Below, piece by piece: positions 30,075 through 53,974 of a stretch of DNA of 64,000 bases (positions within the stretch are counted from its first letter, which is position 1; the number at the start of each line of letters is the position of its first letter). This DNA comes from Marinobacter alexandrii. Its GTDB lineage: Bacteria > Bacteroidota > Bacteroidia > Cytophagales > Cyclobacteriaceae. The stretch covers positions 248,001 to 312,000 of the forward strand of contig JBDWTN010000006.1 in the NCBI GenBank assembly GCA_039984955.1, in the 5' to 3' direction. The position numbers and the translations under genes are program-made. The notes beneath the pieces were generated by a model that was not told the DNA's origin, made no database searches, and worked only from the letters and a program-made list of their open reading frames with translations.

Positions 30075-30139
30075 CAAAAGTATTTCTACCCTTTCATCAG
30101 TCTTATGACAAACGAAAGCTAGCCACTTGATTTTCATCA
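30075..30139 (-). promoter_or_regulatory. -7 box plus CRP/FNR-type site at 55 bp, usp promoter
   Basis: On the leftward strand TACTTTTG (complement of 30075-30082, a perfect TAnnTTTG -7 box) precedes the USP start at 30046. The palindrome TGATTTTCATCA occupies 30128-30139. Centre-to-centre distance is 55 bp, the same as at five other promoters in this window. Confidence 0.7.
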
Positions 30140-30145
30140 TTCTAC

Positions 30146-30210
30146 TGACTTAAATCAGTCTGATCACTGTTAACGATCAACATGAAGAATGGGTAGAGAC
30201 GCTACCTTGA
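30146..30210 (+). promoter_or_regulatory. CRP/FNR-type site and imperfect -7 box, cdo-like promoter
   Basis: TGACTTAAATCA at 30146-30157 and TACCTTGA at 30203-30210 (imperfect TAnnTTTG) are 55 bp apart centre to centre, reading towards the cysteine-dioxygenase-like gene at 30222. The element places the true start at 30222 and not at the earlier ATG at 30189, which would lie upstream of the -7 box. Confidence 0.55.
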
Positions 30211-30221
30211 AATCAAAAATC

Positions 30222-30752
30222 ATGGATATAATAGTTACAGTAAATCAGTTGGTATCTGCATTAGATGAGTGTACAAGAAACAAGTCGCATATACTTGATG
30301 TGATGAGTAAAACTGCAATTCAACGAACAGAATTTGAGCGCTACTATTCATGGAATGATGATAGATATACACGGAATGTACTTGCTAGAAATAAGGAATT
30401 TGAGGTTTTATTAGTTTGTTGGGAGAGAGGTCAATCTTCTCCTATCCATGATTTCAATGCACAGGAAGCATGGATTCATCCAATAGAAGGAATGCTGAGG
30501 GAAGAAAGGTACAAAATCAATTTTGACGATGAAAAATTAGAAAAAGTAAGCAGTGTACTACTTGGCACAAATGAGTTTTCCTATATGAAGCAAGTAGGCA
30601 TTCATAAATATTCGAATGCCTATAGTAACAGATCAGTGACTTTGAATATTTACAGAAAGCCTGTAACTCAATGGCATGTATACAAAGAAACTAGCTCAGA
30701 CAGTACTCTGATGAAAACATGGGAAGATAAAAATCATAATTTACTGGATTAA
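30222..30752 (+). CDS. Cysteine dioxygenase-like cupin with altered iron ligands
   Basis: 176 residues from ATG 30222. The alignment to type I cysteine dioxygenase is clear: YTRN (substrate Arg51), LLVCWERGQSSPIHDF, EGMLREE, VGIHKYSN and SVTLNIY. In the enzyme the iron is held by two histidines in S-x-HDH and a third in SLHLY. Here H76 is kept, but the second is Phe78 (HDF) and the third is Asn142 (LNIY); the Cys of the Cys-Tyr cofactor is also absent. The protein is therefore probably not a normal cysteine dioxygenase. Its promoter shares the 55-bp architecture of the microaerobic genes. Confidence 0.8.
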   Translation: MDIIVTVNQLVSALDECTRNKSHILDVMSKTAIQRTEFERYYSWNDDRYTRNVLARNKEFEVLLVCWERGQSSPIHDFNAQEAWIHPIEGMLREERYKINFDDEKLEKVSSVLLGTNEFSYMKQVGIHKYSNAYSNRSVTLNIYRKPVTQWHVYKETSSDSTLMKTWEDKNHNLLD

Positions 30753-31081
30753 AATTCAGCATCCTTGACCATTATGAGCATCATCTTAAAAGCCTCAATG
30801 GCTTCTAAAGCATGAGGAATTGTTGCTGGCATAAGGATCATTTGTCCCTCTTCAAGCTCAAAATTTTTACCATCAATCGTAATGCGACACCTACCATCTA
30901 CAATGGAAGCTATAGCATCATATGGTGAGGTGTGCTCGGCCAAACCTTGTCCCTTATCAAAAGCAAAAAGTGTGGTGCTCCCATTCTTATTTTTAGTTAG
31001 TGTTTTACTAACCACAGCATCATTTGCATAGCTGATGTACTCCTTGATAGTAAACACACTGGAAGGTTTGATTGAATCCAT
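30749..31081 (-). CDS. Cupin-domain protein at the end of the nos operon
   Basis: 110 residues, single cupin: FDKGQGLAEHTSPYD as motif 1 and EEGQMILMPATIPHALEA as motif 2, both with histidine ligands, so metal binding is likely. It lies 7 bp after nosY on the same strand and is thus the last gene of the nitrous oxide operon; its stop overlaps the end of the cdo-like gene by 4 bp. A related cupin at 12725 has lost the histidines. The role in N2O respiration is unknown. Confidence 0.8.
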   Translation of the reverse strand: MDSIKPSSVFTIKEYISYANDAVVSKTLTKNKNGSTTLFAFDKGQGLAEHTSPYDAIASIVDGRCRITIDGKNFELEEGQMILMPATIPHALEAIEAFKMMLIMVKDAEF

Positions 31082-31088
31082 AATATTA

Positions 31089-33789: not shown

Positions 33790-33790
33790 G

Positions 33791-35182
33791 TCAAATAGAG
33801 TACCGTAACCCTGCAGTCAAAGTATTTTTTTGCTTCATTTGAATCCCTTCCATTTTTTGATAGATCGGCATTCCATATGATATGCCTGCCTTGAAAGCAC
33901 GTAAGATTGGGCTATCTCCAAAAGAAAAGTTTAGCGCCAAATTAGAATTAATTGTTGTGAAACCCGTATTCCTTGCATCTGCTGTGGTTACCATCATTGG
34001 ATTAAGCATTTCATCACTTCCTGTCATGATTGCTTGATTTTTTCCACTTATCTGAATTGCTGTACTTACCCAATCAGTGAGTTTGTAACCTACCCATGAA
34101 TTTATTGTGAATTCATTACCCCATCTATAATCTTCTGAGGACTCTCCTGTTCGTATGGTAAAAAGTGGTTGTGCTCCCCAACTGACTGCTTCAAAGGTTC
34201 CTTTATAGGTTCCTCCTACAGTAAAGTCTATTGTCCCGCTACCAAGCTGCATTGGATAAGGTAATCTTATTCCTTCAGCCATAGGGGTATCGTCTTGACT
34301 CTTGATGCTCCCCGTTGGAAAACTCACTTTTGCATTCAAATGCAAAGAGGAATTTGATTCACTAATAATTCCATACAAAGCACTCACCTTTAGATCGCCT
34401 ATGCCTTCGCTTTTCGTACTGAAATTCATCCCCATTCTGGTACGTAGATCCATTTCATTTCGCCTGAAATTTTGCATAATCATGAGTGTCAAGCGATCTG
34501 AAGGGGCGTACATCACACCAATCATCAACATGTCCATGCGCATTGCTTGGGGTGCCACCATATAGCTTTCGAAAATTGTAGCATTATCAATGTCATTCGA
34601 TCCCTGAAGATTCCCTTCCATTTCCATTCGCATATATCTGGTAGAAAGCATGAATCCGCCCTTATGATGGAGGTGATCGCCCATAATACCAATAGGTGCA
34701 TAAGCATCTGGTCGATTATGATGATGGGTTGGGTGATCGAGTAGTCCAAACTTTGAGTCTTTGAAAAGTTTTTTTAGTTCATCCCAATCATATAAATCAC
34801 CACCTTGCGTTTTTTGGACTCTCTCTGCAACTTCTCTTGTAGAATAAGCAGACAGGTATGCCCCCATTGGACTAGCGATGTTCTTACTTTTTAGGTAGAC
34901 TGCTGATTGAGCCTTTATCAGGGAACCATTTTTTTCATAATCCGCTACCAACAACTTGCTGAAAGTAGATTCATCTTCCTCTTTTAAATAATTAACCAAG
35001 CATTCAATGGCGTCAAACTTTTGAGATGAGTTATTTTGATCGACAGCTACTGCTACAAACTGTTGATCTTTGATATACATATTACAATGAGCGCAGGCAT
35101 CCTTTCCAAGGTTTATAACATCTTGAGCCAAAACTGACCCACACATTACTAGACAGGTGATTAGAGAAATAAAAGATTTCAT
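33791..35182 (-). CDS. NosL domain fused to an outer-membrane beta-barrel
   Basis: 463 residues from ATG 35182. Signal peptide (LITCLVMCGSVLAQ), then a NosL copper-chaperone domain to about residue 150: DACAHCNMYIKDQQF with its CxxCxM motif, KFDAIECLVNYL and ASPMGAYLSAYS. From residue ~165 a histidine-rich linker (DHPTHHHNRPDAYAPI) leads into a ~290-residue barrel with strands such as GGTYKGTFEAVSWGAQP and the terminal TLTAGLRYSI. It may pass copper across or store it at the outer membrane. The next gene upstream also ends in a NosL domain. Confidence 0.82.
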   Translation of the reverse strand: MKSFISLITCLVMCGSVLAQDVINLGKDACAHCNMYIKDQQFVAVAVDQNNSSQKFDAIECLVNYLKEEDESTFSKLLVADYEKNGSLIKAQSAVYLKSKNIASPMGAYLSAYSTREVAERVQKTQGGDLYDWDELKKLFKDSKFGLLDHPTHHHNRPDAYAPIGIMGDHLHHKGGFMLSTRYMRMEMEGNLQGSNDIDNATIFESYMVAPQAMRMDMLMIGVMYAPSDRLTLMIMQNFRRNEMDLRTRMGMNFSTKSEGIGDLKVSALYGIISESNSSLHLNAKVSFPTGSIKSQDDTPMAEGIRLPYPMQLGSGTIDFTVGGTYKGTFEAVSWGAQPLFTIRTGESSEDYRWGNEFTINSWVGYKLTDWVSTAIQISGKNQAIMTGSDEMLNPMMVTTADARNTGFTTINSNLALNFSFGDSPILRAFKAGISYGMPIYQKMEGIQMKQKNTLTAGLRYSI

Positions 35183-35195
35183 ATCAATATTTTTT

Positions 35196-36230
35196 TTATT
35201 GTAATTCAAATTCAGACTTGAGTTCTGTCCAATCCAGTGATCGCCCTGAAACATCCTTCATTATTTTATTTCGTTCTTCATCGCTACTAAATGCTGTCAA
35301 GAACTCCCCCATTGGGCTGGGGATCGATTGAGATATGAGATATGAAGCAGCTGTTGCATCTGATAGTTGTCCTGGGTTCATATAGTCAGCCACCAAATAA
35401 TGTCTCACTTCCGGATGCTCCCATTCTTTTAAGTCATTCAACATGCATTCGATGGCATCATACTTAAAAGCTTTTCCTGTTTCAGTGACCAATTGACCGG
35501 AATGCTGCTTGTCCACAATAGTCATCATACAAAAAGCACATGCATCTTGTCCATAATTGATCGGTTGCGGACCAGAGGAACAACCCGTAACTAACCCGAC
35601 TATAAGTAATGCTGTAGCCATTTGTATGGTTGGTTGTTGTATGGCTATTCGCTCCTTTTTCGCCTGTATAAAGGCGAGTACCGATAGTCCCATTCCAAGA
35701 AACATCAAGTAAGCACCGAGTCTAGGCATAGAGATTGCCTTGAAATTCAGAATCATTTTAGCGCCAATCAACGGTGGTTGATACGCCATAGGTTGACCTT
35801 TATCGTCCGTGAATTTGATGGCCGCATTTTCTTTAAGGTCATGACCATAATCGTACTCCCATTGATAAAAATCATACATGGCAATAGTTCCTAAAACTAG
35901 CATTATTGCAAACCAACTTATGTATAGTGATCTCCTTCCAATAAAGGCGATAATTATCCCAAAGACTATCATACCTATTGCCACTTTGGGGAAGATGCTA
36001 AACTCAGGAATGGTCTCAGGGATATCTTTCATCCCCACATAGTGATTCATGATATTGATATTCTTAATATCATTAGGGTTGGCATCCTCAAACTTATTGA
36101 TATGAATATCCATCCCTATTGCATCTGGATACTGCGGTGCTTCAAGTGTGATATTCCAAAGTGGCCACACAAAGAGCCCTCCAAGCAGGATCGCTCCCAC
36201 CAACATATATAGTTGAGATCGTTTCATCAT
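35196..36230 (-). CDS. Membrane protein with C-terminal NosL domain
   Basis: 344 residues. N-terminal half: four membrane segments (about 8-26, 82-100, 104-122, 172-192) with a periplasmic stretch after the first. Near residue 205-222 there is a further hydrophobic segment ending VTGCSSG, a lipobox-like sequence now internal. The C-terminal ~130 residues are a NosL domain: DACAFCMMTIVDKQHSG (CxxCMM), KYDAIECMLNDLK and PSPMGEFLTAFSS. It looks like a clade II nos membrane protein fused to a former NosL lipoprotein. It lies 13 bp before the next NosL gene. Confidence 0.8.
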   Translation of the reverse strand: MMKRSQLYMLVGAILLGGLFVWPLWNITLEAPQYPDAIGMDIHINKFEDANPNDIKNINIMNHYVGMKDIPETIPEFSIFPKVAIGMIVFGIIIAFIGRRSLYISWFAIMLVLGTIAMYDFYQWEYDYGHDLKENAAIKFTDDKGQPMAYQPPLIGAKMILNFKAISMPRLGAYLMFLGMGLSVLAFIQAKKERIAIQQPTIQMATALLIVGLVTGCSSGPQPINYGQDACAFCMMTIVDKQHSGQLVTETGKAFKYDAIECMLNDLKEWEHPEVRHYLVADYMNPGQLSDATAASYLISQSIPSPMGEFLTAFSSDEERNKIMKDVSGRSLDWTELKSEFELQ

Positions 36231-36255
36231 ATTTTCTACTTTAATGGAAATGGTG

Positions 36256-36282
36256 GGCTGCCTTACGAATCGTAAGGCAGCC
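36256..36282 (-). repeat. Hairpin between nosZ and the next gene
   Basis: A 27-bp near-perfect palindrome: 13-base arms (GGCTGCCTTACGA and its complement) around one central base, 17 bp after the nosZ stop on the transcribed strand. There is no T-run, so it more likely stabilises the nosZ mRNA end or partly attenuates than ends transcription. Confidence 0.75.
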
Positions 36283-36299
36283 TCATTAAAACCTAACTG

Positions 36300-38261
36300 C
36301 TACTCTCCGTCCAGACTCCACTTCAATGGTACGTCTGCACCTTTTGCAGAAACCCTGACGTATCCCTGCATTTCCTGGTGCAGAGCAGAGCAGAAGTCAG
36401 TACAGTAGAAAGGCCAAACGCCTTCTTTTTTCGGCTCCCAGATAAACGTCTCTGTTTGCCCCGGCATAATTAGAAGCTCAGAAGTGTTCGCTCCAATCAT
36501 ACTCACCCCATGAGGTACATCATAATCTTGCTCTAGGTTGGTTACATGAAAGTAAACTTTATCTCCAGTTTTGATTCCCTCAATATTATCCGGAGCAAAG
36601 TGACTTCTAATCATTGTCATATAGATGTGTACTTCATCGCCATCTCTCTCTACACGTGCTTCTTTCTCATTCTTAGCTGCATATGGATGCATGTTTTCCT
36701 CCAGCTTGTAAAACTTGGTTTGATTTGGTTTGATCAAATCGGCCGGCGCGCCTGCTGCATAGTGAGGCTCTCCAATAGTTGGGAAATCAAGGATCAATTC
36801 CATTTTGTCCCCAGAGATGTCATAGAGCTGAGCTGAGTGTGCAAGCTCTGGTCCTGTTGGCAAGTATCTATCTTTTGTAATCTTGTTCATGGCTACCAAG
36901 TATTTACCAAAAGGCTCCTGAGAGTTTCCTCCAGGTATCATCAAGTGGCCTACTGAGTAATAGGTAGGTTGACGATCTAGTACTTCCCACGTACCTAATT
37001 TCCATTTCACTACCTCAGAACTAATAAAGAACGTGGTGTACGCATTTCCTTTGGCGTCAAATTCTGTATGCAATGGACCTAAACCAGCTCCTTGAACCAC
37101 TCCAGCTACTACATCTTCATAGTTTAGTACTGGAATACCGTAAGCTTCACCATCAAATTTCTCATTCTCAATTGCATCCAACATTTTAGTAAATGAGTGA
37201 GCTGTCAATGCGGCAGCAAGCTTACCACTACCGATGATGTATTCTCCTGATGGGTCTACATCGCATCCATGAGGTGACTTTGGTGTAGGTAGAAAATAAA
37301 CTAGTCCTGGATACTTAGAAGGGTCTAGAATCTTCACTTCCTTCTTCATGGTCGTTGTAGCCATGTGAGTAGACTCACTGTAGATGTTATGTGCATACTC
37401 TGTTTCCATTGTTTCGAATTGACCACTCGCGATTAGCTCCTCTGCTTTTTTCCAGTTAATCGCAGCGATGTAATCCTTATCATTTTGAGAGGCGTTTACT
37501 TCCAATAGTGAATTTGCTTCTTCCGTATTGTAGGTAGAGAAGAACATCCATCCATGAGATTTTTTTCTTCCAGGGTGAGCCAAATCAAAATTAAAACCAG
37601 GCATCATTACTTGAAATGCCAGATCCATTTCACCACTTTCCTGATCTACGCTCAAGAATGTTAATGCTCCTTTGAAATTGCCTTTATATTCATCGATCGG
37701 TAAATCTCGCTGAGGTACGGGAACAGAAAATCTAGTTCCTGCCACAACATATTCGGTATTTTCAGTTACAAAAGATGAACTGTGATTACCAGCACTATTC
37801 GGAATTTCAATGATCTCTTCTGTCTCAAAAGATGACAGACTAATCCGCGCGATACGTGGCGTGTTGTTGCCATTGATAAAACACCATCTACCGTCCACTT
37901 TACCTTTGGTTTGAGAAAGGTCAGGGTGATGGGCATCATCCCATGGCACAGGGCCAAAGGAAGTGTTTAGCATTGGCTTGGTTTCTTCATTGAAACCGTA
38001 CCCTTTTTCTGCATCCACAGAGAATACAGGAACAACTCTGAAAAGTCGTCCTGATGGAAGTCCATATATGGAAAGTTGGCCGCTGTAACCACCAGAGATG
38101 AATGCATAAAACTCATCATGCTCACCTGGAGGGACAAAAGATCGCTCAGCCATGTTGCTACTTAGTGCTCCTGACTGATTACCACCCTGGCCACATGATG
38201 TGACAATAAACAGCGTGGCGATCACCAATGCTTTTAATAAAATATGCATCTTAATCTTCAT
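36300..38261 (-). CDS. nosZ: Nitrous oxide reductase, Sec-type (clade II) lipoprotein form
   Basis: 653 residues. It starts with a Sec-type signal that ends in a lipobox (LFIVTSCGQGG) and lacks a Tat twin-arginine, as in clade II enzymes. A seven-bladed propeller holds the CuZ ligands (DDAHHPDLSQ, SPHGCDVDP, THM/H residues) and a C-terminal cupredoxin has the CuA motif CTDFCSALHQEMQGY. It reduces N2O to N2 outside the cytoplasmic membrane with electrons from cytochrome c. The fasciclin, cytochrome and regulator genes precede it and the maturation genes follow. The lipobox implies membrane anchoring, which is inferred. Confidence 0.95.
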   Translation of the reverse strand: MKIKMHILLKALVIATLFIVTSCGQGGNQSGALSSNMAERSFVPPGEHDEFYAFISGGYSGQLSIYGLPSGRLFRVVPVFSVDAEKGYGFNEETKPMLNTSFGPVPWDDAHHPDLSQTKGKVDGRWCFINGNNTPRIARISLSSFETEEIIEIPNSAGNHSSSFVTENTEYVVAGTRFSVPVPQRDLPIDEYKGNFKGALTFLSVDQESGEMDLAFQVMMPGFNFDLAHPGRKKSHGWMFFSTYNTEEANSLLEVNASQNDKDYIAAINWKKAEELIASGQFETMETEYAHNIYSESTHMATTTMKKEVKILDPSKYPGLVYFLPTPKSPHGCDVDPSGEYIIGSGKLAAALTAHSFTKMLDAIENEKFDGEAYGIPVLNYEDVVAGVVQGAGLGPLHTEFDAKGNAYTTFFISSEVVKWKLGTWEVLDRQPTYYSVGHLMIPGGNSQEPFGKYLVAMNKITKDRYLPTGPELAHSAQLYDISGDKMELILDFPTIGEPHYAAGAPADLIKPNQTKFYKLEENMHPYAAKNEKEARVERDGDEVHIYMTMIRSHFAPDNIEGIKTGDKVYFHVTNLEQDYDVPHGVSMIGANTSELLIMPGQTETFIWEPKKEGVWPFYCTDFCSALHQEMQGYVRVSAKGADVPLKWSLDGE

Positions 38262-39798: not shown

Positions 39799-39844
39799 TC
39801 CTACCCTTTAATTTCTGCTAATTTACTATTTAAATAATATCGGA

Positions 39845-39881
39845 CAAAAATATCCTTTATTATTTATTATGATTTAAATCA
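39845..39881 (-). promoter_or_regulatory. nos operon promoter with FNR-type palindrome
   Basis: Leftward TATTTTTG (complement of 39845-39852) is a perfect TAnnTTTG box. TGATTTAAATCA at 39870-39881 is a perfect palindrome with the CRP/FNR core TGAT-N4-ATCA. The centre distance is 27 bp, not the 55 bp seen elsewhere, so the site would overlap the -33 region. This could mean a class II-like activator site or a repressor site. Confidence 0.5.
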
Positions 39882-39894
39882 GTCAAACACTCAT

Positions 39895-41238
39895 TTACAC
39901 AGCTTTGCTAAATTGATGTTCTCTCTTACTACTATTCATGCGAGCGTCTAGTGCAGAGCAAATCACTCGAATTACTTCTTTTCCTTCAGGTAGTACCATC
40001 ATTCCTTCATCGCTATAAGTGATTAGCCCTTCATCTTGAAGTTGATCAAGCATTTCATAATTCAATAAGATGCCATACTCCAGAAACTCTGCCTCGTGCC
40101 ATCTGGTCTTAAAATCACACATGAGATGGAGTATATGCTTCCTGAAAAATAAATCTGCTTTCGTGTGAATATGTCCTCTTTCAATTGGAAGTTGGCCTTT
40201 ATCCAGAATCTCATAGTATTTAGGAATACTCTTTTCATTTTGAGCAAAACCAGACCAGCTATCGCTAATCGCGCTAACTCCCAAGCCGACCAAAAGCTTA
40301 CTGGTGAATGGTGTATAGCCCATAAAGTTTCTATGTAACTCTCCTTCCTCTCGTGCTTCTAAAAGCTCGTCACCAGGCAATACATAATGATCCATACCTA
40401 CTTCTTCGTATCCAGCTGCTTTAAAAGCTTCTTTACCCAGTTGCATAAACTCCCATTTTTCATCAGCGTTAGGCAGATGGGATTCATATGATTTTTGAGC
40501 AGGTCGTAATACTGGTACATGCGCATAACTATAATAAGCAATACGCTCTGGTTTTAGCTCAATGATTTGATCGAGTGTATTTTGAACAGACTCAGGTGTC
40601 TGACCAGGAAGGCCATAGACTACATCGTAATTCACAGACGTGTAACCAATTTCTCTAGCTTTTTCAGTAATTGCTTTTACCTGCTCAAAAGATTGCATAC
40701 GATTGATGAGCTTTTGTACATTCAAGTCAAAATCCTGAATACCAAAACTTACGCGATTGAATCCAATGGCATGCAAAGTCTCCAGATGGCTGGTTCTGGT
40801 ATTTGCAGGATGTCCTTCAAAACTCATTTGAAATTCTTTTGACAAAGTTGCTTTGCTGATGATGCCTGACAGCAGCTTATTCAAATTTTCAGAAGCAAAG
40901 AATGTGGGGGTTCCTCCTCCCAGGTGAATCTCCCGGATCAATGGTTTTTCCGGCAACATTTCAAGATACAGCTCCCATTCTTTCAATACATGATCCAAGT
41001 ATGGACCTTCAACCTGATGGTTTTTGGTGATACGTGTATTGCAGGCACAATAGGTACACAAACTTTCGCAAAATGGAAGGTGTATGTAGATACTTACTTC
41101 TTTACTGCTCTCCCAATAGGCAGACTGAAGTGTTTTTTTGTAGGCTTCTATGGTGAAGCTTTCTGGCTCCCAAAAAGGAACTGTCGGGTAACTTGTATAT
41201 CTAGGAACAGGCTGATTGTATTTCTTTAGGTCTTGCAT
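39895..41238 (-). CDS. hemN: Oxygen-independent coproporphyrinogen III oxidase
   Basis: 447 residues. Radical-SAM cluster motif CESLCTYCAC (CxxxCxxC plus the HemN-specific extra Cys), GGGTPTF for SAM binding, SFEGHPANT and SFGIQDFD blocks, and the HemN C-terminal domain (FRKHILHLMCDF). It oxidises coproporphyrinogen to protoporphyrinogen without oxygen, providing heme under low oxygen for the cbb3 oxidase encoded next to it. The promoter at 41255-41319 has a CRP/FNR-type palindrome. Confidence 0.94.
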   Translation of the reverse strand: MQDLKKYNQPVPRYTSYPTVPFWEPESFTIEAYKKTLQSAYWESSKEVSIYIHLPFCESLCTYCACNTRITKNHQVEGPYLDHVLKEWELYLEMLPEKPLIREIHLGGGTPTFFASENLNKLLSGIISKATLSKEFQMSFEGHPANTRTSHLETLHAIGFNRVSFGIQDFDLNVQKLINRMQSFEQVKAITEKAREIGYTSVNYDVVYGLPGQTPESVQNTLDQIIELKPERIAYYSYAHVPVLRPAQKSYESHLPNADEKWEFMQLGKEAFKAAGYEEVGMDHYVLPGDELLEAREEGELHRNFMGYTPFTSKLLVGLGVSAISDSWSGFAQNEKSIPKYYEILDKGQLPIERGHIHTKADLFFRKHILHLMCDFKTRWHEAEFLEYGILLNYEMLDQLQDEGLITYSDEGMMVLPEGKEVIRVICSALDARMNSSKREHQFSKAV

Positions 41239-41254: not shown

Positions 41255-41319
41255 CAAAGCTAGAGGGATAAAGAAGGGTGTGGTTTGATGAATGGAAGGG
41301 GTGAAGATGACTTATGTCA
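41255..41319 (-). promoter_or_regulatory. hemN promoter: -7 box plus CRP/FNR-type site at 55 bp
   Basis: Leftward TAGCTTTG (complement of 41255-41262) is a perfect TAnnTTTG, 17 bp before the hemN ATG. ATGACTTATGTCAT (41307-41320) is a palindrome with core TGAC-N4-GTCA. The centre-to-centre distance is 55 bp. Confidence 0.7.
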
Positions 41320-45304: not shown

Positions 45305-47473
45305 TTAGTTCCCTTCGGCTACTCCTTCTACATTCTTAATATCAGTTCCAAGTCTTTGCAGGTAAGCAATCAAGGCTATGATTTCAGCATCACTCGCCAT
45401 CTTGATTCCTTCCAGCTCTAGCCCTTTGGAAATCAATGCTGCCTGATTTTCCGCATCTGTTACGGCTTGTTCATCATATCCTTCTGGGTATGGCACACCT
45501 AGCGTCTGCATAGCTCGGATCTTCTTTGGAGTTCGTGCTTTATCCCACTCCTGCTCAAAGAGCCAAGGGTATGGTGGCATAATTGATCCTGGCGACATAC
45601 TCGTTGGGTCAAGCATGTGATAGAAATGCCAGCTATCCGGGTACTTCTTACCTACTCTGTGAAGATCTGGCCCTGTTCTCTTAGATCCCCATTGAAATGG
45701 ATGATCGTATACGAACTCGCCTGCCTTGGAGTATTCTAAATCCACAGGATCATATCTCATCACCTCTGATCTAAAAGGTCTAATCATTTGTGAGTGACAG
45801 GTATAACAGCCTTCTCTCACATAGATATCACGTCCGTTTAATTCAAGTGGTGTATAAGGTTTTACTGTTGAAATTGTAGGAACGTTGCTCTGAATAAGGA
45901 ATGTAGGCACAATCTCAATGACGCCACCAATAGCTACCAGAACCAAACTCCAAACTAGCATTCGCATCGGTTTCCATTCAAATATTCTTCTATGCCAGTG
46001 TTCGCTCTTCTCTGGCTTGTAATCTTTCATCAACGGTGCTGCTTGAGCCTCAGTTGTTGGTTGGAAGCTACCAGCCCGTGCTGTTTTCACCAGGTTATAT
46101 ACCATTACAAACACACCAGATAAATATAACAGTCCACCAAATGCTCTCAATGCATACATTGGCATGATCTGAGTGACTGTTTCCAGGAAGTTGCTGTAAA
46201 CAAGTGTCCCATCAGGATTGAATTGTTTCCACATTAAACTTTGAGTGAAACCAGCCCAATACAATGGAATCGCATAGAAAAGGATGCCCATGGTTCCGAT
46301 CCAGAAGTGAACATTAGCGAGTTTCTGTGAGTGAAGCTTTGTTTTGTATAGCTTAGGAATAAGGTAGTAAAGCATCGCGAACGTCAGGAAGCCATTCCAT
46401 CCCAATCCCCCTATGTGCACATGACCTACAATCCAATCCGTAAAGTGACCGATCGCATTTACGTTTTTAAGTGACAGCATCGGACCTTCAAATGTGGCCA
46501 TACCATAACAAGTGATTGCCACTACCATGAATTTCAGGATAGCATCTTCTCTAACCTTGTCCCAAGCTCCTCTTAATGTCAATAATCCGTTCAGCATACC
46601 ACCCCATGATGGAGCAATCAGCATTACAGAAAATACCACCCCTAAAGATTGCGCCCAATCCGGTAGTGAATTGTACAATAAGTGATGTGGACCTGCCCAG
46701 ATGTAGATAAAGATTAGGGCCCAGAAATGAATGATTGAAAGCCTGTATGAATAAATGGGACGACCAGATGCCTTAGGGATGAAGTAGTACATCAAACCTA
46801 AGTATGGAGTGGTGAGAAAGAACGCTACTGCATTGTGTCCATACCACCATTGTACCAATGCGTCCTGCACTCCAGCATACCATGAGTAGCTTTTCATGAA
46901 GTCAATGGGAAGCTCAAATGAATTTACAATGTGTAGCATAGCTACCGTCACAAACGTGGCAATGTAGAACCAGATGGCTACATAAAGATGACGCTCTCGT
47001 CGTTTGATGATAGTCATGAACATGTTTAAGCCGAATACTACCCAGATCAAAGCGATCGCAATATCAATAGGCCATTCAAGCTCAGCATACTCTTTGCCGG
47101 ATGTCATCCCCAATGGGAGTGTTATAGCAGCTGAAAGAATGATTAGCTGCCATCCCCAGAAGTGAATCTTACTGAGAAGGTCACTATACATACGCGTTTT
47201 ACACAATCGCTGAAGAGAGTAGTATACTCCAGCAAAAATCCCGTTCCCTACAAATGCGAAAATCACTGCATTGGTATGCAATGGTCTCACACGCCCAAAG
47301 GTGGTATACTGTAATCCGAAATTGGCTTCTGGCCACACAAACTGACATGCAACAAGAAGCCCCACCGACATACCGATAATTCCAAAAATCGTGGTAGCGA
47401 TCAGGAAGTTTCGGACCGTGGTGTTGTCATAATGAAAGGTCTCAAGACCTACTTTTTGGTTGTTTTCTGACAT
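45305..47473 (-). CDS. ccoNO: cbb3 cytochrome c oxidase, fused subunits I and II
   Basis: 722 residues. The first ~480 are CcoN: twelve membrane helices with heme and CuB histidines (RPLHTNAVIF, WWYGHNAVAFFL, AGPHHLLYN, VGHVHIGGLGWNGF). From ~500 on it is CcoO, a membrane-anchored cytochrome with REGCYTCHSQMIRPF and GSIMPPYPWLF. Fusion of the two is usual in Bacteroidota. It is the catalytic core of the high-affinity terminal oxidase, reducing oxygen to water and pumping protons. It overlaps ccoS by 25 bp. Confidence 0.96.
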   Translation of the reverse strand: MSENNQKVGLETFHYDNTTVRNFLIATTIFGIIGMSVGLLVACQFVWPEANFGLQYTTFGRVRPLHTNAVIFAFVGNGIFAGVYYSLQRLCKTRMYSDLLSKIHFWGWQLIILSAAITLPLGMTSGKEYAELEWPIDIAIALIWVVFGLNMFMTIIKRRERHLYVAIWFYIATFVTVAMLHIVNSFELPIDFMKSYSWYAGVQDALVQWWYGHNAVAFFLTTPYLGLMYYFIPKASGRPIYSYRLSIIHFWALIFIYIWAGPHHLLYNSLPDWAQSLGVVFSVMLIAPSWGGMLNGLLTLRGAWDKVREDAILKFMVVAITCYGMATFEGPMLSLKNVNAIGHFTDWIVGHVHIGGLGWNGFLTFAMLYYLIPKLYKTKLHSQKLANVHFWIGTMGILFYAIPLYWAGFTQSLMWKQFNPDGTLVYSNFLETVTQIMPMYALRAFGGLLYLSGVFVMVYNLVKTARAGSFQPTTEAQAAPLMKDYKPEKSEHWHRRIFEWKPMRMLVWSLVLVAIGGVIEIVPTFLIQSNVPTISTVKPYTPLELNGRDIYVREGCYTCHSQMIRPFRSEVMRYDPVDLEYSKAGEFVYDHPFQWGSKRTGPDLHRVGKKYPDSWHFYHMLDPTSMSPGSIMPPYPWLFEQEWDKARTPKKIRAMQTLGVPYPEGYDEQAVTDAENQAALISKGLELEGIKMASDAEIIALIAYLQRLGTDIKNVEGVAEGN

Positions 47474-47658
47474 TGGTCACTAGGTTTAGTACTTGAATCG
47501 TTTGCAGAAATCTGCGCCTCTTCCTCGTCGAAGAGGATACGGACCGATGGTGTATAGTCATCCTCAAACTGCCCCGAACGAGACGCCCAAAGGAATGCTC
47601 CTAGGAAGCTGCCTGCTAGCAGTAAACTGCACGCGATAAGGATAAAAATGACACTCAT
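47449..47658 (-). CDS. ccoS: cbb3 oxidase assembly protein CcoS
   Basis: 69 residues: one membrane helix (MSVIFILIACSLLLAGSFLG), then AFLWASRSGQFEDDYTPSVR, the CcoS signature with GQFDD-type motif, and a short acidic/lysine-rich tail. It is required for cofactor insertion into cbb3 oxidase. It is the first gene of the oxidase operon, read from the promoter at 47669-47733. Confidence 0.92.
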   Translation of the reverse strand: MSVIFILIACSLLLAGSFLGAFLWASRSGQFEDDYTPSVRILFDEEEAQISANDSSTKPSDQCQKTTKK

Positions 47659-47668
47659 AATCCGAAGA

Positions 47669-47733
47669 CAAGATTAGTGGAGCATCGTAGGTTGGCTAAT
47701 GAGAGGTGTTAGTGGGAAGGATGATTTTTGTCA
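47669..47733 (-). promoter_or_regulatory. cco operon promoter: -7 box plus CRP/FNR-type site at 55 bp
   Basis: Leftward TAATCTTG (complement of 47669-47676, one mismatch to TAnnTTTG) lies 11 bp before ccoS. TGATTTTTGTCA spans 47722-47733; centre distance is exactly 55 bp. Just beyond it TGATCT (47739) and AGATCA (47751) form another inverted repeat with a 6-bp spacer. Confidence 0.65.
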
Positions 47734-48315: not shown

Positions 48316-48384
48316 AGACATAGAGCTATCCATTTACATATAAGAAACAAGAACTAAATAAGCTATCATTAGTGTTATATCGAT

Positions 48385-48678: not shown

Positions 48679-48687
48679 TTTGCAGGT

Positions 48688-49524: not shown

Positions 49525-51889
49525 TTCTACGCCCTACCCATGCCACCATCAAGGTAACGAAACCAACGACGGTCACAGAGCTGATTGGCATCAGTATAGC
49601 CGAAATAAGTGGAGTAAGATGCCCGCTCATCGCAAAGGATAAACCCACAATGTTGTACAGAAACGAGATACCGAATGCGATGAAAACTATATTTATTACC
49701 CGCTTGGAAAACGAAAGGACCTTTGGAAGGTCCGTTACTTTATCCGAAGTAAGAATAGCATCACAAGCAGGAGAAAATTGATGTATATCCTCAGACACTG
49801 CAATACCTACAGATGCCTCTTTTAAAGCGCCTGCATCATTTAATCCATCTCCCACCATCAACTGATTCCAATCACTATTTTTGAGATAATCTAGTTTATC
49901 CATTGGTTTTTGCGCAAAGTGAACTTCATCAAAATGAGGCTCAAGCTTAGTTTTTTCAGCCGCGTTATCTCCCGACAATAGCGTCAATAGATAATTTACT
50001 TTCAAGCTTTTAAGCATTTCAAAAATGCCTTTTCTATAAGAAGACTTGATTGTAAATCGTCCAAGCTTACTACCTACTTTCACATAAACGTTAGATTCAT
50101 TGATGGCTGAATTATTGTCAGTGATTTGAAGAAATTCAGCTGAACCTATTTTGAGCAAAATACTATTTATCTCTGCAGTAAATCCTCTTCCTGTCTCTTC
50201 TTGAAAATTGACAATCGGAAATTTTTCACACGCTGGAAGTTCATGGTGAATCATTCTACTTAAAGGGTGAGCCGAATTGCCAATAGCCGATTTAAGATAT
50301 GATAGATCTATTTCACTTAAGACATCACCTTCATATCTAAGTCCAGCTTCAGTAGATGTAAGCGTTCCGGTTTTATCAAAAACGATGGAATCAACATGAG
50401 CCAATGATTCAATTACTTCAGCATTTTTTAGATATAGTCCCTCTTTGCCTAGCTTTCTCATTGCATGACCGTAGGTAAATGGAAGGACAAGTGCTAGTGC
50501 ACATGGGCATGCAACGATTAAAACAGCGGTGACCGAATTCCATACGAGTGTTGGGTCATTGATCCACCAATAAAGTGCAGTATATCCTGCTAGTAGGATA
50601 ATTGTCAGCGTAAAGTATTTGCTTATTTTATCAACCCAGGTGTGTAAGTCCGCATTTGTCTTTTTCTTGAATGAATCAGTATTCCAAAGTCTCGTAAGTT
50701 CACTATTATCAACAGTTTGTATAAGTTCAATTTCTAACTCCCCTCCTTTCTGTCTCCCTCCTGCATATACCTGCTGTCCTATCTCTCTATACTCTGGCTT
50801 AGATTCTCCGGTAACAAAACTGTAGTCAATGTTTCCTTTTCCTCCTCTAATGACGCCATCAGCAGGGATTAATTCATCATTATGAGTAAGCACTAAATCT
50901 CCTTTTTTCAATTCTTTTAGAGGTCTTTGGATTTCTTCACGCTCTACTTTACATGTCACAGAGACCGGAAAATACGAGGAGAAATCACGATCAAAAGAAA
51001 GCGCCTGATAAGTCTTGCTTTGATACCATTTTCCTATTAGAAGGAAGAAAACCAAACCAGCGAGTGAATCCACATATCCCATTCCCAATCCTGAAATAAT
51101 CTCATAAACACTTCTCCCAAACAACGTAAGAATTCCTAAAGCAATGGGTACATCAATATTTAGATTTCCATACCTGATGCCTTTGCAGGCTTTTGTGAAA
51201 TAATCGTTAGCTGAATAAAAAACCACTGGAAAAGCCAGTATAAGGTTTATCCAGTTAAATACTGTTTTGAAATCTTTGGTAAGCAGAAAATTCTGATCCA
51301 GATACTCAGGCATGCTCATCAGCATGGCATTACCAAAACAAAAACCAGCCACCGCTATTTTTGTCCCAATATTAGATTTAGAAATCTGTTTTTTGGTTTT
51401 ATCTAAACTATCAAGCGAAATTCCAGGTGGGTAACCCAACTGAGACAGTAGGATTACAAGCTCTTTAAGTGACTTTTGCTTGTGATCAAATGTGATCACT
51501 ACTTCTCTTTTCACAAAGTTTACTTCTGAACGAAGCGCTGCTTTCTCCAGTTTTGGTAGATGCTCAAGTAAATAAATACATGAACTACAGTGAATTCCTG
51601 GTAAAAACAATTTCACCACGGATACTTCTTCACTTTTGAATCTCAATAGCTGCTTTTGAATATCCTCATTATCCAGGAAAGCATATTTTCGCTCCGCCTT
51701 TATTTCAGATAATGATCTATTCTCTTGGGAAGTTTCAGAGTAGTATTGATTCAAATTGCTTTGATCCAAAAGCTCGTAAACAGCTCTGCAGCCATAGCAA
51801 CAAAAAAGATGATCCTCGATAGCTATAGAGTCATCACATACATCACCACAATGATGGCATTTCAGTTCTTCAGCTTGCAATAGCTCCAT
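49517..51889 (-). CDS. ccoI: Copper-exporting P-type ATPase for cbb3 assembly (CcoI/FixI type)
   Basis: 790 residues from ATG 51889 (a TTG at 51910 is less likely). An N-terminal cysteine-rich domain (CHHCGDVCDD and CCYGCRAVYELL) and an HMA domain (PGIHCSSCIYLLEHL) are followed by the P1B core: TGESKPEY, membrane CPC in ACPCALALVLPF, DKTGTLTS phosphorylation site, NSAHPLSR and GDGLNDAGAL. The layout is CopA2/CcoI, which exports copper slowly to the periplasm for oxidase assembly. The start overlaps the universal stress gene by 20 bp, so both share the promoter at 52337. Confidence 0.93.
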   Translation of the reverse strand: MELLQAEELKCHHCGDVCDDSIAIEDHLFCCYGCRAVYELLDQSNLNQYYSETSQENRSLSEIKAERKYAFLDNEDIQKQLLRFKSEEVSVVKLFLPGIHCSSCIYLLEHLPKLEKAALRSEVNFVKREVVITFDHKQKSLKELVILLSQLGYPPGISLDSLDKTKKQISKSNIGTKIAVAGFCFGNAMLMSMPEYLDQNFLLTKDFKTVFNWINLILAFPVVFYSANDYFTKACKGIRYGNLNIDVPIALGILTLFGRSVYEIISGLGMGYVDSLAGLVFFLLIGKWYQSKTYQALSFDRDFSSYFPVSVTCKVEREEIQRPLKELKKGDLVLTHNDELIPADGVIRGGKGNIDYSFVTGESKPEYREIGQQVYAGGRQKGGELEIELIQTVDNSELTRLWNTDSFKKKTNADLHTWVDKISKYFTLTIILLAGYTALYWWINDPTLVWNSVTAVLIVACPCALALVLPFTYGHAMRKLGKEGLYLKNAEVIESLAHVDSIVFDKTGTLTSTEAGLRYEGDVLSEIDLSYLKSAIGNSAHPLSRMIHHELPACEKFPIVNFQEETGRGFTAEINSILLKIGSAEFLQITDNNSAINESNVYVKVGSKLGRFTIKSSYRKGIFEMLKSLKVNYLLTLLSGDNAAEKTKLEPHFDEVHFAQKPMDKLDYLKNSDWNQLMVGDGLNDAGALKEASVGIAVSEDIHQFSPACDAILTSDKVTDLPKVLSFSKRVINIVFIAFGISFLYNIVGLSFAMSGHLTPLISAILMPISSVTVVGFVTLMVAWVGRRIN

Positions 51890-52316
51890 TCTCAGAACGA
51901 TTTGGGACAATCATGACTGGAACTCCGCTTTCTTTAATCACACTGACAGTATGACTTCCAAGCTCATTATTTCTTCCATTACTATTGATTCCTACAATGA
52001 CTAAATCAAATTGATGTTCCTTGATAAACCGAAGTGTTGTATTTTCCACATTCCCTGATAAAACCACATTCCGGATTTTTTCTTCCGCACGATCCAATAA
52101 GTTCTGTGCCAATTGGTTCATACGATCTTCTACTTCCTTAATTTTTGAATCATGAGATATGAGTTCGTTTGTATATGCATATTTTGCTGATACGGGGAAT
52201 ACATGAAGAAATGATATGATAGCCTCATCATTTAATCTTGATATCTCCAACCCAAATTGGGCGGCACTCCAAGAGGCTGGGGAAAAATCTGTAGGGATAA
52301 GTATACTCGAGATCAC
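51870..52316 (-). CDS. Universal stress protein, single domain
   Basis: 148 residues from a GTG start. UspA fold: ISSILIPTDFSPASWSAAQF at the N-terminus and VIVGINSNGRNNELGSHTVSVI near the end, where the usual G-x2-G ATP motif is altered (GINSNGRNNELGS). It overlaps ccoI by 20 bp. Pairing of a stress protein with the cbb3 copper ATPase recalls the USP genes of FNR regulons in other bacteria. Confidence 0.88.
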   Translation of the reverse strand: MISSILIPTDFSPASWSAAQFGLEISRLNDEAIISFLHVFPVSAKYAYTNELISHDSKIKEVEDRMNQLAQNLLDRAEEKIRNVVLSGNVENTTLRFIKEHQFDLVIVGINSNGRNNELGSHTVSVIKESGVPVMIVPNRSENGAIAS

Positions 52317-52336
52317 AGGTATTCTAGTTTAAACAT

Positions 52337-52401
52337 CAAAAGTAGATATGACCTACATGCTGTAAATTGACATTTGTCAATTGCGCTATTGAATTTTGTC
52401 A
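52337..52401 (-). promoter_or_regulatory. usp-ccoI promoter: -7 box plus CRP/FNR-type site at 55 bp
   Basis: Leftward TACTTTTG (complement of 52337-52344) is a perfect TAnnTTTG, 21 bp before the GTG start. TGAATTTTGTCA at 52390-52401 is centred exactly 55 bp away; one half-site deviates (TGAA). Confidence 0.6.
52365..52382. promoter_or_regulatory. Strong palindrome between usp-ccoI and the FixL-like kinase gene
   Basis: AATTGACATTTGTCAATT: 8-base arms AATTGACA / TGTCAATT around two bases, containing TTGAC-N4-GTCAA. It is centred 33 bp from the usp -7 box and about 65 bp before the kinase ATG at 52439. It is the best palindrome of this class in the window and may serve either direction. Confidence 0.6.
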
Positions 52402-52438
52402 CTATAGCTATGCTTGGCTTACTTTGAGCGATAATACT

Positions 52439-53719
52439 ATGAACAAATCAGATTCAGTGGAAGGATTAGAGGTCCTTGAAAAACTATTCCAAAGCTCAGG
52501 TGAAGGAATCATGCTTTTTAACGGGCAGGGAGAAGTTGTAATGGTGAATCCTCGAGCACGAGAGATGTTTGGCTACTCAGATGGTGAGCTTTTGGGCCAA
52601 AAAGTAGAAAAATTTGTCCCTAAAGAGGTACAGCCTAATCATGAAAACTATCGAAACGAATACCTAAAAAAACCTGAACCGAGGCGTATGGGTATAGGAC
52701 GAGATCTATCTGGTCTGAAGAAGGATGGAAGCACTTTTCCATTAGAGATTAGCTTAAGCTACATGCAGCATAACGATAAGAAACTCGTAGTTGCCTTTAT
52801 CACAGATATCTCCGTAAGAAAGGAGAATGAGAAGAAACTTGAGGAGCAACGAAAAAAACTCGAAGAATACACATCTAAGCTTGAGAAGAATGTGAAAGCC
52901 AGAACGAGTGAGCTTGAACATATGAATCTTGGTCTTCAAAGTCAAATCCAAGAAAGAAAACTAGCAGAGGAAGCTCTCAAAAAAAGCTTGGAGGATCTAA
53001 AAAAAGCGGAACAAGAAATACTTAAGTCATTGGAGAAAGAAAAAGAACTTGGAGAACTGAAATCCAGATTTGTTTCTATGGCCAGCCATGAGTTCAGAAC
53101 ACCTCTAACAACTGTACTCTCCTCAGCAAACCTCATTGCGAAATATACAGAGTCTGAACAGCAAGGGGCGAGAGACAAACATATAGAGCGCATAAAAAAT
53201 AGTGTTCAAAATCTAACCAACATTTTGAATGATTTCCTTTCTTTGGAGAAGCTGGAAAGCGGCGCAGAAAGGGTTAACTTGACCCAAGTCGACATTCAAT
53301 CGCTTTTAGAGGAAGTCATTGAAGAAATGAGTCAGAGCCTAAAGAATGGTCAGAAAATCATGTTTGAAGGACAAGCACCTTCAGTTCGCACAGATGCTCA
53401 TATCCTGAAGAATATTCTAATCAATTTGATTTCAAATGCAAGTAAATATTCCAATGAAAATGATCGAATAGAGATACTTGTAGACAGTCAAGATGCGCTA
53501 AACATTCATATTGTAGATCATGGAATAGGCATTCCAAAAGATGAGCAACAAAATCTATTTGAACGTTTCTTCAGGGCAGGTAACGCCATCAATATTCAAG
53601 GGACAGGTTTAGGGCTCAATATTGTAAGGAAGTATACTCAACTGCTTGAAGGGCAAATTCAATTTAAGAGTGAAGAAGGAATAGGAAGTACGTTTAGTCT
53701 TTCGCTTCCTTTGAATTAG
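52439..53719 (+). CDS. FixL-like PAS histidine kinase without the heme histidine
   Basis: 426 residues from ATG 52439; codons upstream overlap the palindrome and are not coding. One PAS domain (about 10-125) closely resembles the FixL heme PAS (GEGIMLFNGQGEVVMVN, FGYSDGELLGQKV, MGIGRDLSGLKKDGSTFPLE). The FixL heme ligand His before GIGR is Arg here (EPRRMGIGR). A coiled coil (~130-210) leads to HisKA (ASHEFRTPLTTVLSS) and HATPase (NLISNASKYSNE, DHGIGI, GTGLGLNIV). It is soluble. The receiver-CRP gene at 54018 is the obvious partner. Confidence 0.9.
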   Translation: MNKSDSVEGLEVLEKLFQSSGEGIMLFNGQGEVVMVNPRAREMFGYSDGELLGQKVEKFVPKEVQPNHENYRNEYLKKPEPRRMGIGRDLSGLKKDGSTFPLEISLSYMQHNDKKLVVAFITDISVRKENEKKLEEQRKKLEEYTSKLEKNVKARTSELEHMNLGLQSQIQERKLAEEALKKSLEDLKKAEQEILKSLEKEKELGELKSRFVSMASHEFRTPLTTVLSSANLIAKYTESEQQGARDKHIERIKNSVQNLTNILNDFLSLEKLESGAERVNLTQVDIQSLLEEVIEEMSQSLKNGQKIMFEGQAPSVRTDAHILKNILINLISNASKYSNENDRIEILVDSQDALNIHIVDHGIGIPKDEQQNLFERFFRAGNAINIQGTGLGLNIVRKYTQLLEGQIQFKSEEGIGSTFSLSLPLN

Positions 53720-53897
53720 CTTCGATAGCAGTCTTACTGAAAAGATATACCAAAGGTCCCAGAATAGGAATCAGGGCAACAATGGCAAACCATACCATCT
53801 TTTTATTAATAGAAAAACTTGCCATAAGAATGTTTATCATCGAATAAACAGCAATTGCAGCGGCAAAAACAGCCAAATATGTCCAGTTACTCATCAT
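53694..53897 (-). CDS. Small PLDc_N-like membrane protein
   Basis: 67 residues from ATG 53897 (MMSNWTYLAVFAAAIAVYSM). Two membrane helices; the second with MVWFAIVALIPILGPLVYLF matches the PLDc_N motif (W..I....P..GP..Y) found at the N-terminus of cardiolipin synthases and as short stand-alone proteins. The function is unknown. Its end overlaps the kinase gene by 26 bp. The promoter at 53910-53974 shares the 55-bp architecture. Confidence 0.75.
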   Translation of the reverse strand: MMSNWTYLAVFAAAIAVYSMINILMASFSINKKMVWFAIVALIPILGPLVYLFSKTAIEANSKEAKD

Positions 53898-53909
53898 TGA
53901 TATTTTTAT

Positions 53910-53974
53910 CAAATTGACTCAGATTGACATTCATATCCGATGATATTCATTAGACTTAACAGTGATTATCATCA
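53910..53974 (-). promoter_or_regulatory. CRP/FNR-type site 55 bp from a -7-like box, PLDc_N gene
   Basis: Leftward TCAATTTG (complement of 53910-53917, one mismatch to TAnnTTTG) lies 13 bp before the ATG. TGATTATCATCA at 53963-53974 is centred exactly 55 bp away, and also lies about 44 bp before the receiver-CRP gene, where it could mediate autoregulation. Confidence 0.55.

What the first reader, a model, noticed from the sequence alone, without database searches (positions are those of the whole stretch)
30075..53974. Six promoters share a CRP/FNR-type palindrome exactly 55 bp from the -7 box
Seen directly: hemN (TGACTTATGTCA), ccoS (TGATTTTTGTCA), usp at 30046 (TGATTTTCATCA), cdo-like at 30222 (TGACTTAAATCA), usp-ccoI at 52316 (TGAATTTTGTCA) and the PLDc_N gene at 53897 (TGATTATCATCA). 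In each, the centre of the 12-mer is 55 bp from the centre of a TAnnTTTG-like box placed 11-29 bp before the start codon. Three -7 boxes are perfect, two have one mismatch, one (cdo-like) is weaker. Equal distance means equal face of the helix, as for a class I CRP/FNR activator. The gene set (anaerobic heme synthesis, cbb3 oxidase, its copper ATPase, stress proteins) is a classic low-oxygen regulon. Caveat: boxes were chosen by eye.
Basis: partly seen in the sequence, partly recalled or inferred. Interest (0 to 1): 0.87.

Follow-up and report, generated by a model that had tools for sequence, protein, structure and literature searches.

The report
Tandem-site low-oxygen regulon with receiver-CRP regulator
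Six bacterial genes, several of them typical of life at low oxygen, share a switch of two evenly spaced protein-binding sites, probably worked by an unusual regulator encoded beside them; the layout recurs in related bacteria, so it can be tested directly.

Summary
In all six promoters the palindrome lies exactly 55 bp (centre to centre) from a -7-like box. Its TCA half is present in all six, though it was not used to pick them. If the box covers -12 to -5, the sites are centred near -63.5 and -41.5: a tandem activator promoter, not simple class I.

Both spacings recur elsewhere. Gap 45 leads in 13 relatives (35 of 149). The 22-bp distance leads without using the box (29 of 73). A second island in the same genome repeats both. 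Orthologous promoters keep them.

The likely regulator is in the window: a receiver-cNMP-HTH_Crp fusion (54018-55064) near a FixL-like PAS histidine kinase (52439-53719). Of 247 genomes sampled from the phylum, 19 have a strict tandem promoter and 16 of these have the fusion (38 of 247 overall); 7 of the 25 tandem sites in those 16 genomes lie 4-27 bp downstream of its gene.

Binding, phosphorylation, oxygen sensing and activation are inferred. I call it a new variant of a known kind (FixL/FixJ/FixK, FNR).

The parts
41308..41319 (-). hemN promoter, site 1 (TGACATAAGTCA)
41286..41297 (-). hemN promoter, site 2 (TTCCATTCATCA, 4/6)
   Evidence: TCA half kept in orthologues
41255..41262 (-). hemN -7 box TAGCTTTG
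39895..41238 (-). hemN, oxygen-independent coproporphyrinogen III oxidase
   Evidence: TIGR00538
47722..47733 (-). ccoS promoter, site 1 (TGACAAAAATCA)
47700..47711 (-). ccoS promoter, site 2 (TAACACCTCTCA, 5/6)
47669..47676 (-). ccoS -7 box TAATCTTG (5/6)
47449..47658 (-). ccoS (FixS, 69 aa), with ccoNO behind it
30128..30139 (-). usp30046 promoter, site 1 (TGATGAAAATCA)
30106..30117 (-). usp30046 promoter, site 2 (TTTCGTTTGTCA, 4/6)
30075..30082 (-). usp30046 -7 box TACTTTTG
29132..30046 (-). universal stress protein, two Usp stretches
   Evidence: PF00582
30146..30157 (+). cdo promoter, site 1 (TGACTTAAATCA)
30168..30179 (+). cdo promoter, site 2 (TGTTAACGATCA, 5/6)
30203..30210 (+). cdo box TACCTTGA (4/6 to TAnnTTTG)
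   Evidence: three of four orthologues TAnnTTG
30222..30752 (+). cysteine dioxygenase-like gene
52390..52401 (-). usp52316 promoter, site 1 (TGACAAAATTCA)
52368..52379 (-). usp52316 promoter, site 2 (TGACAAATGTCA, 6/6)
52337..52344 (-). usp52316 -7 box TACTTTTG
51870..52316 (-). universal stress protein
   Evidence: PF00582
49517..51910 (-). heavy-metal P-type ATPase (ccoI-like by position and copper-type matches)
   Evidence: TIGR01525 and TIGR01511 matches, both below the curated cut-offs
53963..53974 (-). PLDc_N promoter, site 1 (TGATGATAATCA); also upstream of the fusion regulator
53941..53952 (-). PLDc_N promoter, site 2 (TAATGAATATCA, 5/6)
53910..53917 (-). PLDc_N -7 box TCAATTTG (5/6)
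53694..53897 (-). PLDc_N protein, 67 aa
   Evidence: PF13396
52439..53719 (+). PAS histidine kinase, FixL-like PAS (ORF opens at 52367; start chosen by eye)
54018..55064 (+). candidate regulator: receiver - cNMP_binding - HTH_Crp_2 (ORF opens at 53940; start chosen by eye and by homologues)

Best explanation
The six promoters are tandem CRP/FNR-type activator promoters. Two dimers of one regulator bind on the same face of the helix, 22 bp apart, centred near -63.5 and -41.5, upstream of a -7 box (shown: the sequence architecture; inferred: binding and activation). The most likely regulator is the receiver-cNMP-HTH_Crp fusion at 54018-55064, phosphorylated by the PAS histidine kinase at 52439-53719. 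Together they would do in two proteins what FixL, FixJ and FixK do in three: sense low oxygen, and through a phosphorylated CRP-type factor switch on cbb3 oxidase assembly (ccoS operon), copper supply (usp and the P-type ATPase), oxygen-independent haem synthesis (hemN) and Usp stress proteins. Palindromes in the kinase-usp and regulator-PLDc_N intergenic regions may also give feedback on the system's own genes. A paralogous fusion probably runs a second 80-kb stress island in the same genome.
For: Architecture: 6 of 6 promoters have TCA at the exact second-site offset. In 49 relative sequences with gap 45, TCA is there in 25 (other offsets mean 1.2, maximum 4) and TGA at its partner offset in 17 (mean 0.9, maximum 3). 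Box-free: 29 of 73 palindrome pairs are 22 bp apart; distances other than 22 and 23 have mean 1.4. Orthologues: usp52316 18/18 in 8 of 8, ccoS 16/18 in 4 of 4, hemN 16-17 and usp30046 15-17 in 4 of 4 each, cdo 14-16 in 4 of 4, PLDc_N 16 in 2 of 2 found, one of these with the box 1 bp off. Regulator: Pfam Response_reg + cNMP_binding + HTH_Crp_2; D54, T84, K106 invariant in 13 homologues. Association: 16 of 19 tandem genomes have it against 38 of 247 overall, Fisher P 3e-12; of 25 tandem sites in those 16 genomes, 16 lie within 20 kb of its gene and 7 lie 4-27 bp downstream of it. Kinase: its PAS is nearest FixL in PDB by sequence (E 7.5e-18); a kinase match ends within 41 bp before the fusion match in 12 of 13 named full-length loci; the Arcticibacter PAS matches FixL at E 8.7e-31 with the pocket residues kept.
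Against: No transcription start, binding or expression datum was seen for this genome; -63.5/-41.5 rests on box numbering from Flavobacterium psychrophilum (PMC9723704, passages). In the window's own kinase the FixL histidine and distal arginine are kept but pocket positions 206 and 215 are changed (R to E, I to R), so haem binding is uncertain. Of 38 genomes with the fusion 22 have no strict tandem promoter, and inside the own class the association is only P 0.008. G045 has a fusion but no gap-45 hit; G040 has fusions, no gap-45 hit, and four of its ten pairs 31 bp apart. G056, without the fusion at the cut-off, has four gap-45 hits, none with the second site. Genomes without the fusion (G010, G075, G206) use the layout, probably through a short FNR-like protein, so it is not exclusive to the fusion. 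In five of six window promoters the upstream half of site 2 departs from TGA (by one base in three, by two in two). The fusion's own upstream region scores only 12 of 18 in the window, 16-17 in G001, G003, G004 and G006 with a box 1 bp off, and 9 and 11 in G002 and G009. The two-mismatch scan of the own genome gave 57 matches against 26 for the reversed pattern.
Confidence: 0.72

Rival explanations
1. Same tandem promoters, but the regulator in this genome is another CRP/FNR-type protein: the paralogous fusion at C7:370389-371540, or the 207-aa protein of L019 whose helix (AREVISR) has the FNR-type E..SR.
For: The paralogue is 47% identical over residues 5-344 and sits among 22-bp tandem sites. 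L019 has E and R at the contact positions. Short FNR-like proteins serve the layout in genomes without the fusion.
Against: The window fusion and kinase sit inside the cluster with four of the six promoters within 14 kb, and tandem sites abut fusion genes in other genomes. No FNR-like protein of the CxxC kind was found in G000: its two matches to a relative's FNR are the two fusions.
Confidence: 0.19
2. Simple class I promoters with one working site at about -62; the second site is a relic or chance.
For: Site 1 is perfect in 6 of 6 and site 2 is degenerate in five of six. Of 49 relative gap-45 sequences 17 have neither half of site 2 at its offset, although some of these lie in coding frames.
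Against: TCA at the exact offset in 6 of 6; 29 of 73 box-free pairs at 22 bp; 18/18 kept in 8 of 8 usp52316 orthologues.
Confidence: 0.06
3. The outer or the inner site works as a repressor site, so the tandem limits expression instead of raising it (as tandem FNR sites can do; recalled).
For: Some sites also lie near the regulator's and the kinase's own genes, where feedback repression would be natural.
Against: The inner site is at the activating class II position by the borrowed numbering, both sites are on one face, and the gene set is one that rises at low oxygen in a phylum relative (PMC9723704, passages).
Confidence: 0.03

Closest known systems
FixL/FixJ/FixK cascade of rhizobia (family facts recalled; listings)
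   Same: PAS histidine kinase nearest FixL, a receiver protein, a CRP/FNR-type DNA-binding part, and targets that include cbb3 oxidase genes.
   Different: Receiver and CRP output are one protein; no LuxR-type FixJ step is needed; the kinase pocket in this genus departs from FixL; promoters carry two sites 22 bp apart.
FNR and Anr promoters of Proteobacteria (recalled)
   Same: TGA-N6-TCA palindrome family, low-oxygen genes such as hemN, site near -41.5.
   Different: The candidate has one cysteine and no FNR-type cluster at its N terminus; a second site is placed at fixed distance; a Bacteroidota -7 box.
E. coli Crp class I, II and III promoters (PMC5957442, passages)
   Same: Site positions near -41.5 and -61.5; promoters with two Crp dimers exist.
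   Different: There class III sites are near -93.5 and combine with other factors; here the two sites are nearly adjacent, 22 bp apart.
MalR-like CRP/FNR proteins of Bacteroidota (PMC8510549, passages)
   Same: CRP/FNR family in the same phylum, studied in Flavobacteriales and Saprospiraceae metagenome genomes.
   Different: Linked there to carbon use; no receiver domain or tandem layout in the passages seen.
DosS/DosR of mycobacteria (recalled)
   Same: Haem kinase and response regulator; a low-oxygen regulon rich in Usp and an Hsp20 protein.
   Different: DosR has a LuxR-type output, not CRP.

Membership tests
Class I CRP/FNR promoter | One activator site centred near -61.5, none at -41.5 | tested here: not met
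   Second site 22 bp downstream, TCA in 6 of 6
Class II (or tandem) CRP/FNR promoter | A site centred near -41.5 from the start of transcription | tested here: inconclusive
   Centre is 33 bp from the box centre, -41.5 only by borrowed box numbering; starts not mapped
Response regulator | Receiver domain with phospho-acceptor Asp, Thr and Lys | tested here: met
   PF00072; D54, T84, K106 invariant in 13
CRP/FNR superfamily | cNMP_binding domain followed by a CRP-type HTH | tested here: met
   PF00027 and PF13545; Foldseek matches to CRP and FNR structures on a model of moderate quality
FNR proper | Cysteines for a [4Fe-4S] cluster | tested here: not met
   One cysteine, in the receiver domain, in the protein printed
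FixK | Stand-alone CRP/FNR protein without receiver | tested here: not met
   Receiver fused in front
FixJ | Receiver with LuxR-type output | tested here: not met
   HTH_Crp_2 output
FixL haem PAS | Proximal His200, distal Arg220, hydrophobic pocket with Ile215, Arg206 | tested here: inconclusive
   His and Arg220 kept in the window kinase, 206 is E and 215 is R; positions 200, 206, 215 and 220 all kept in Arcticibacter
FixL haem PAS | Haem and O2 binding | not testable with these tools
   Needs purified protein

The most novel reading that the evidence does not exclude
A family of response regulators with a CRP/FNR output, each paired with a FixL-like kinase, acts as the main low-oxygen and stress-survival switch of a large part of the class to which this genome belongs. 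It works through an obligatory tandem of two dimers at -63.5 and -41.5 that takes the place of the -33 element of the Bacteroidota promoter, so the oxygen signal reaches cbb3, haem and Usp genes in one phosphotransfer step instead of the FixL-FixJ-FixK cascade.
Probability: 0.45. Interest if true: 0.76.

Novelty: new variant of a known kind. Interest (0 to 1): 0.64.

Why it matters
Activator rules for Bacteroidota promoters, which use a -7 TAnnTTTG box, are poorly known (recalled). Here is a promoter grammar with base-pair precision (two palindromes 22 bp apart, the outer one 55 bp from the -7 box) that can be scanned in genomes of the group and predicts a regulon gene by gene. It comes with a candidate regulator and kinase, so how these bacteria sense low oxygen becomes testable with one deletion and one reporter set. 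A receiver-CRP fusion would also be a shortcut of the classic FixL/FixJ/FixK cascade.

Tried and rejected
(b) A single class I site as the whole story: TCA of the second site is found in 6 of 6. (c) A CxxC FNR-like protein as regulator in this genome: the two matches in G000 to a relative's FNR are the two fusions. (d) The 241-aa CRP (L017): its helix GTSRQTVTT differs. L019 was not excluded.

Weak or empty: the perfect-box gap-45 hits of the own genome outside the window (six) look mostly like chance. The structure model of the fusion is of moderate quality (mean pLDDT 74.6, pTM 0.42); the Foldseek matches shown are CRP/FNR structures, nothing beyond what the sequence said. Of 13 named full-length loci, six showed no tandem site of 16 or more (L052, L053, L060, L061, L062, L063), seven did, two of these only at 16. 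One protein behind a tandem promoter that I first took for a Usp (G021, L265) has no Pfam match.

Literature: ten searches; no listed title or abstract beginning describes a receiver-CRP regulator or this tandem layout in Bacteroidota. Two of the ten returned no paper at all, the lists of the others were cut to 10-15 rows or shorter, and the library holds open-access papers only, so absence there is weak evidence. Beyond listings I saw passages of PMC9723704, PMC8510549 and PMC5957442, and no whole paper.

Rows dropped: the match lists were cut by the tool. One search used the 13 completely listed of 59 genomes and left out partly listed G007. One search used 11 genomes and left out one listed pair each of G007 and G002. 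The 58-sequence set holds nine own sequences: the six window promoters (three with imperfect boxes) and three of the six other own hits; the three left out are not TGAY-N4-RTCA. Its other 49 are the gap-45 rows. Of the 49, 45 were fetched with their downstream genes, together with all six own hits outside the window; the four of G056 were not. In one search I kept tblastn matches of 40% identity or more that begin by residue 25 of the query.
Full report
What was checked. The window is part of a 4.88-Mb genome (G000:C6:248001-312000) whose -7 boxes and gene content fit Bacteroidota (my inference; no name was given). All six promoters are as described: TGAN6TCA, 45 nt, then a TAnnTTTG-like box, with boxes at 6/6 (three), 5/6 (two) and 4/6 (cdo). 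Genes by profile: hemN (TIGR00538), ccoS (FixS), Usp at 30046 and 52316, cysteine dioxygenase-like cdo, PLDc_N. Downstream of usp52316 is a heavy-metal P-type ATPase; ccoNO lies behind ccoS, then FixP-, FixG- and FixH-type proteins and a DsbD_2 protein.

The spacing is not an accident of the window. With TGAY-N4-RTCA, gaps of 38-52 and a perfect box, the 13 completely listed relatives of the 59 searched gave gap 45 in 35 of 149 matches, mean 7.7 at the 13 gaps other than 45 and 46 (Poisson P about 6e-13). Nine same-genus genomes gave 14 of 55, with 7 at gap 46 (P 2.6e-6). In the own genome outside the window the perfect-box test is weak: six hits, four in long open frames, none with TCA at the second-site offset.

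The second site. Aligning 58 gap-45 sequences showed TCA at offset 31 in 31 of them and TGA at offset 22 in 19: a second palindrome exactly 22 bp nearer the gene. For the 49 sequences from relatives alone the figures are 25 and 17, against means of 1.2 and 0.9 at other offsets; 32 of the 49 have at least one of the two halves. All six window promoters have the TCA. Without any use of the box, distances between TGAY-N4-RTCA pairs in 11 relatives peak at 22 bp: 29 of 73, mean 1.4 at distances other than 22 and 23. Scored with both palindromes and the box at these distances, the six are exactly the first six of the 56 window gene starts listed. In F. psychrophilum the box covers -12 to -5 (PMC9723704, passages); then the sites are centred near -63.5 and -41.5. 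E. coli Crp sites cluster at -41.5 and -61.5 for class II and class I (PMC5957442, passages). The spacer columns show no clear TTG where a -33 element (recalled) would be.

Conservation at orthologous genes. In stretches of eight same-genus genomes, usp52316 keeps 18 of 18 positions in 8 of 8, ccoS 16 in 4 of 4, hemN 16-17 in 4 of 4, usp30046 15-17 in 4 of 4, cdo 14-16 in 4 of 4 with TAnnTTG-type boxes in three, PLDc_N 16 in the 2 of 2 found (one with the box 1 bp off); ccoNO, inside the operon, reaches at most 12. The kinase upstreams have both palindromes in full in 8 of 8 but box matches of only 2-4 of 6; the fusion upstreams score 16-17 in four genomes with a box 1 bp off, 15 and 13 in G005 and G007, and 11 and 9 in G009 and G002. 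Gap-45 sites of relatives precede Usp genes by Pfam in G010, G024 and G028, and Hsp20, pyruvate phosphate dikinase-type and phosphate acetyltransferase genes; hemN-like starts in G001 and G002 and Usp-like starts in G001 and G026 are by eye.

A second island in the same genome. A two-mismatch scan for the tandem layout gave 57 matches against 26 for the reversed pattern; of the 12 with at most one mismatch five are in the window and five in C7:349-419 kb. In 80 kb there, 23 palindrome pairs are 22 bp apart; other distances from 14 to 40 give 0-3, except 39 bp with 9. Genes behind sites there include Hsp20, DnaJ, an FtsH-type protease, Usp, a pyruvate phosphate dikinase-type enzyme, VIT1 and an acetyl-CoA hydrolase/transferase. 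A paralogous fusion regulator lies in the island (C7:370389-371540).

The regulator. ORF 54018-55064 is receiver, cNMP-binding and HTH_Crp_2, with invariant D54, T84 and K106 in 13 homologues and the helix GTATESVIRILSEF. A homologue at E <= 1e-50 is in 38 of 247 phylum genomes. The strict tandem plus box is in 19 of 247 (29 matches; reversed-pattern control 0), and 16 of the 19 have the fusion (Fisher 2.9e-12; within the own class, counted by me from the two tables, 16 of 18 against 22 of 43, P 0.008). Of 25 tandem sites in those 16 genomes, 16 lie within 20 kb of the fusion gene and 7 are 4-27 bp downstream of it. Named examples just behind the gene: Mucilaginibacter psychrotolerans, Arcticibacter svalbardensis, Sphingobacterium corticibacter; of 13 named full-length loci seven have a site of 16 or more within the fetched stretch and six do not, the three Flavobacteriaceae among them. 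Tandem genomes without the fusion at the cut-off (G075, G206), and G010 with many gap-45 sites, have a short FNR-like protein; in G010 it has an N-terminal CxxC and the helix GTATETVIRLLSEF, nearly that of the fusion. So the layout seems to belong to a recognition-helix group; in this genome the members found by HTH_Crp_2 are the two fusions and one fragment.

The kinase. A PAS histidine kinase stands upstream in the window, and a kinase match ends within 41 bp before the fusion match in 12 of 13 named loci (not found in Chitinophaga filiformis at that cut-off). The FixL haem histidine is present in 24 of 24 PAS sequences aligned, the distal arginine in 13 of 24, and isoleucine at 215 only in Arcticibacter, Mucilaginibacter and Sphingobacterium. 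The histidine is also common in PAS domains not known to bind haem (recalled), so it proves little alone. The Arcticibacter PAS matches FixL at E 8.7e-31, the window's at 7.5e-18. An O2-sensing haem kinase is thus well founded for the former and open for the window.

Shown and inferred. Shown: spacing, second site, conservation, association with the fusion gene. Inferred: binding by the fusion, its phosphorylation by the kinase, activation at low oxygen. Support from outside: cbb3 oxidase and haem genes rise on oxygen limitation in F. psychrophilum (PMC9723704, passages); that paper's text does not mention Fnr or Crp.

Novelty. FNR, FixK and CRP promoters with sites at -41.5 or -61.5 are textbook (recalled); FixL/FixJ/FixK is the closest system. 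The combination of receiver-CRP fusion, FixL-like partner and a fixed 22/55-bp tandem appeared in none of the listings of ten literature searches of an open-access library, which is weak evidence of absence. I rate it a new variant of a known kind.

Noticed in passing
G000:C7:340001-420000 (L320-L323), outside the window: A second island with 23 palindrome pairs 22 bp apart, a paralogous fusion regulator and stress genes (Hsp20, DnaJ, FtsH-type, Usp).
   Followed up: partly
G000:C7:340001-420000: Pairs 39 bp apart are also in excess there (9, other distances except 22 bp at most 3), unexplained.
   Followed up: no
G000:C7:362544-362672 (L020): A fragment like the end of a third fusion regulator, in an open frame of 80 aa.
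   Followed up: no
window 39376-39881: An Rrf2-type regulator gene with a palindrome TGATTTAAATCA only 17 nt from a perfect TATTTTTG box, a spacing unlike the six.
   Followed up: no
window 33791-38261: A nos_propeller protein and two NosL-type proteins, suggesting nitrous oxide reduction genes next to the regulon.
   Followed up: no
G001, G003, G004, G005, G006 (gap 46) and G007 (gap 45): Look-alike sites with gap 46, or 45 in G007 where they precede a ferredoxin-reductase-type gene (L274); the G007 site lacks both halves of the second site.
   Followed up: partly
G040:C1:144703-148534: Four palindrome pairs 31 bp apart (three turns) close to one of its fusion genes: perhaps the same system with another spacing.
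   Followed up: no
G000:C7:2424598 (L288) and G002:C368:9955 (L281): A gap-45 site conserved before a 62-aa Cys-rich small ORF without Pfam match, without the second site.
   Followed up: no
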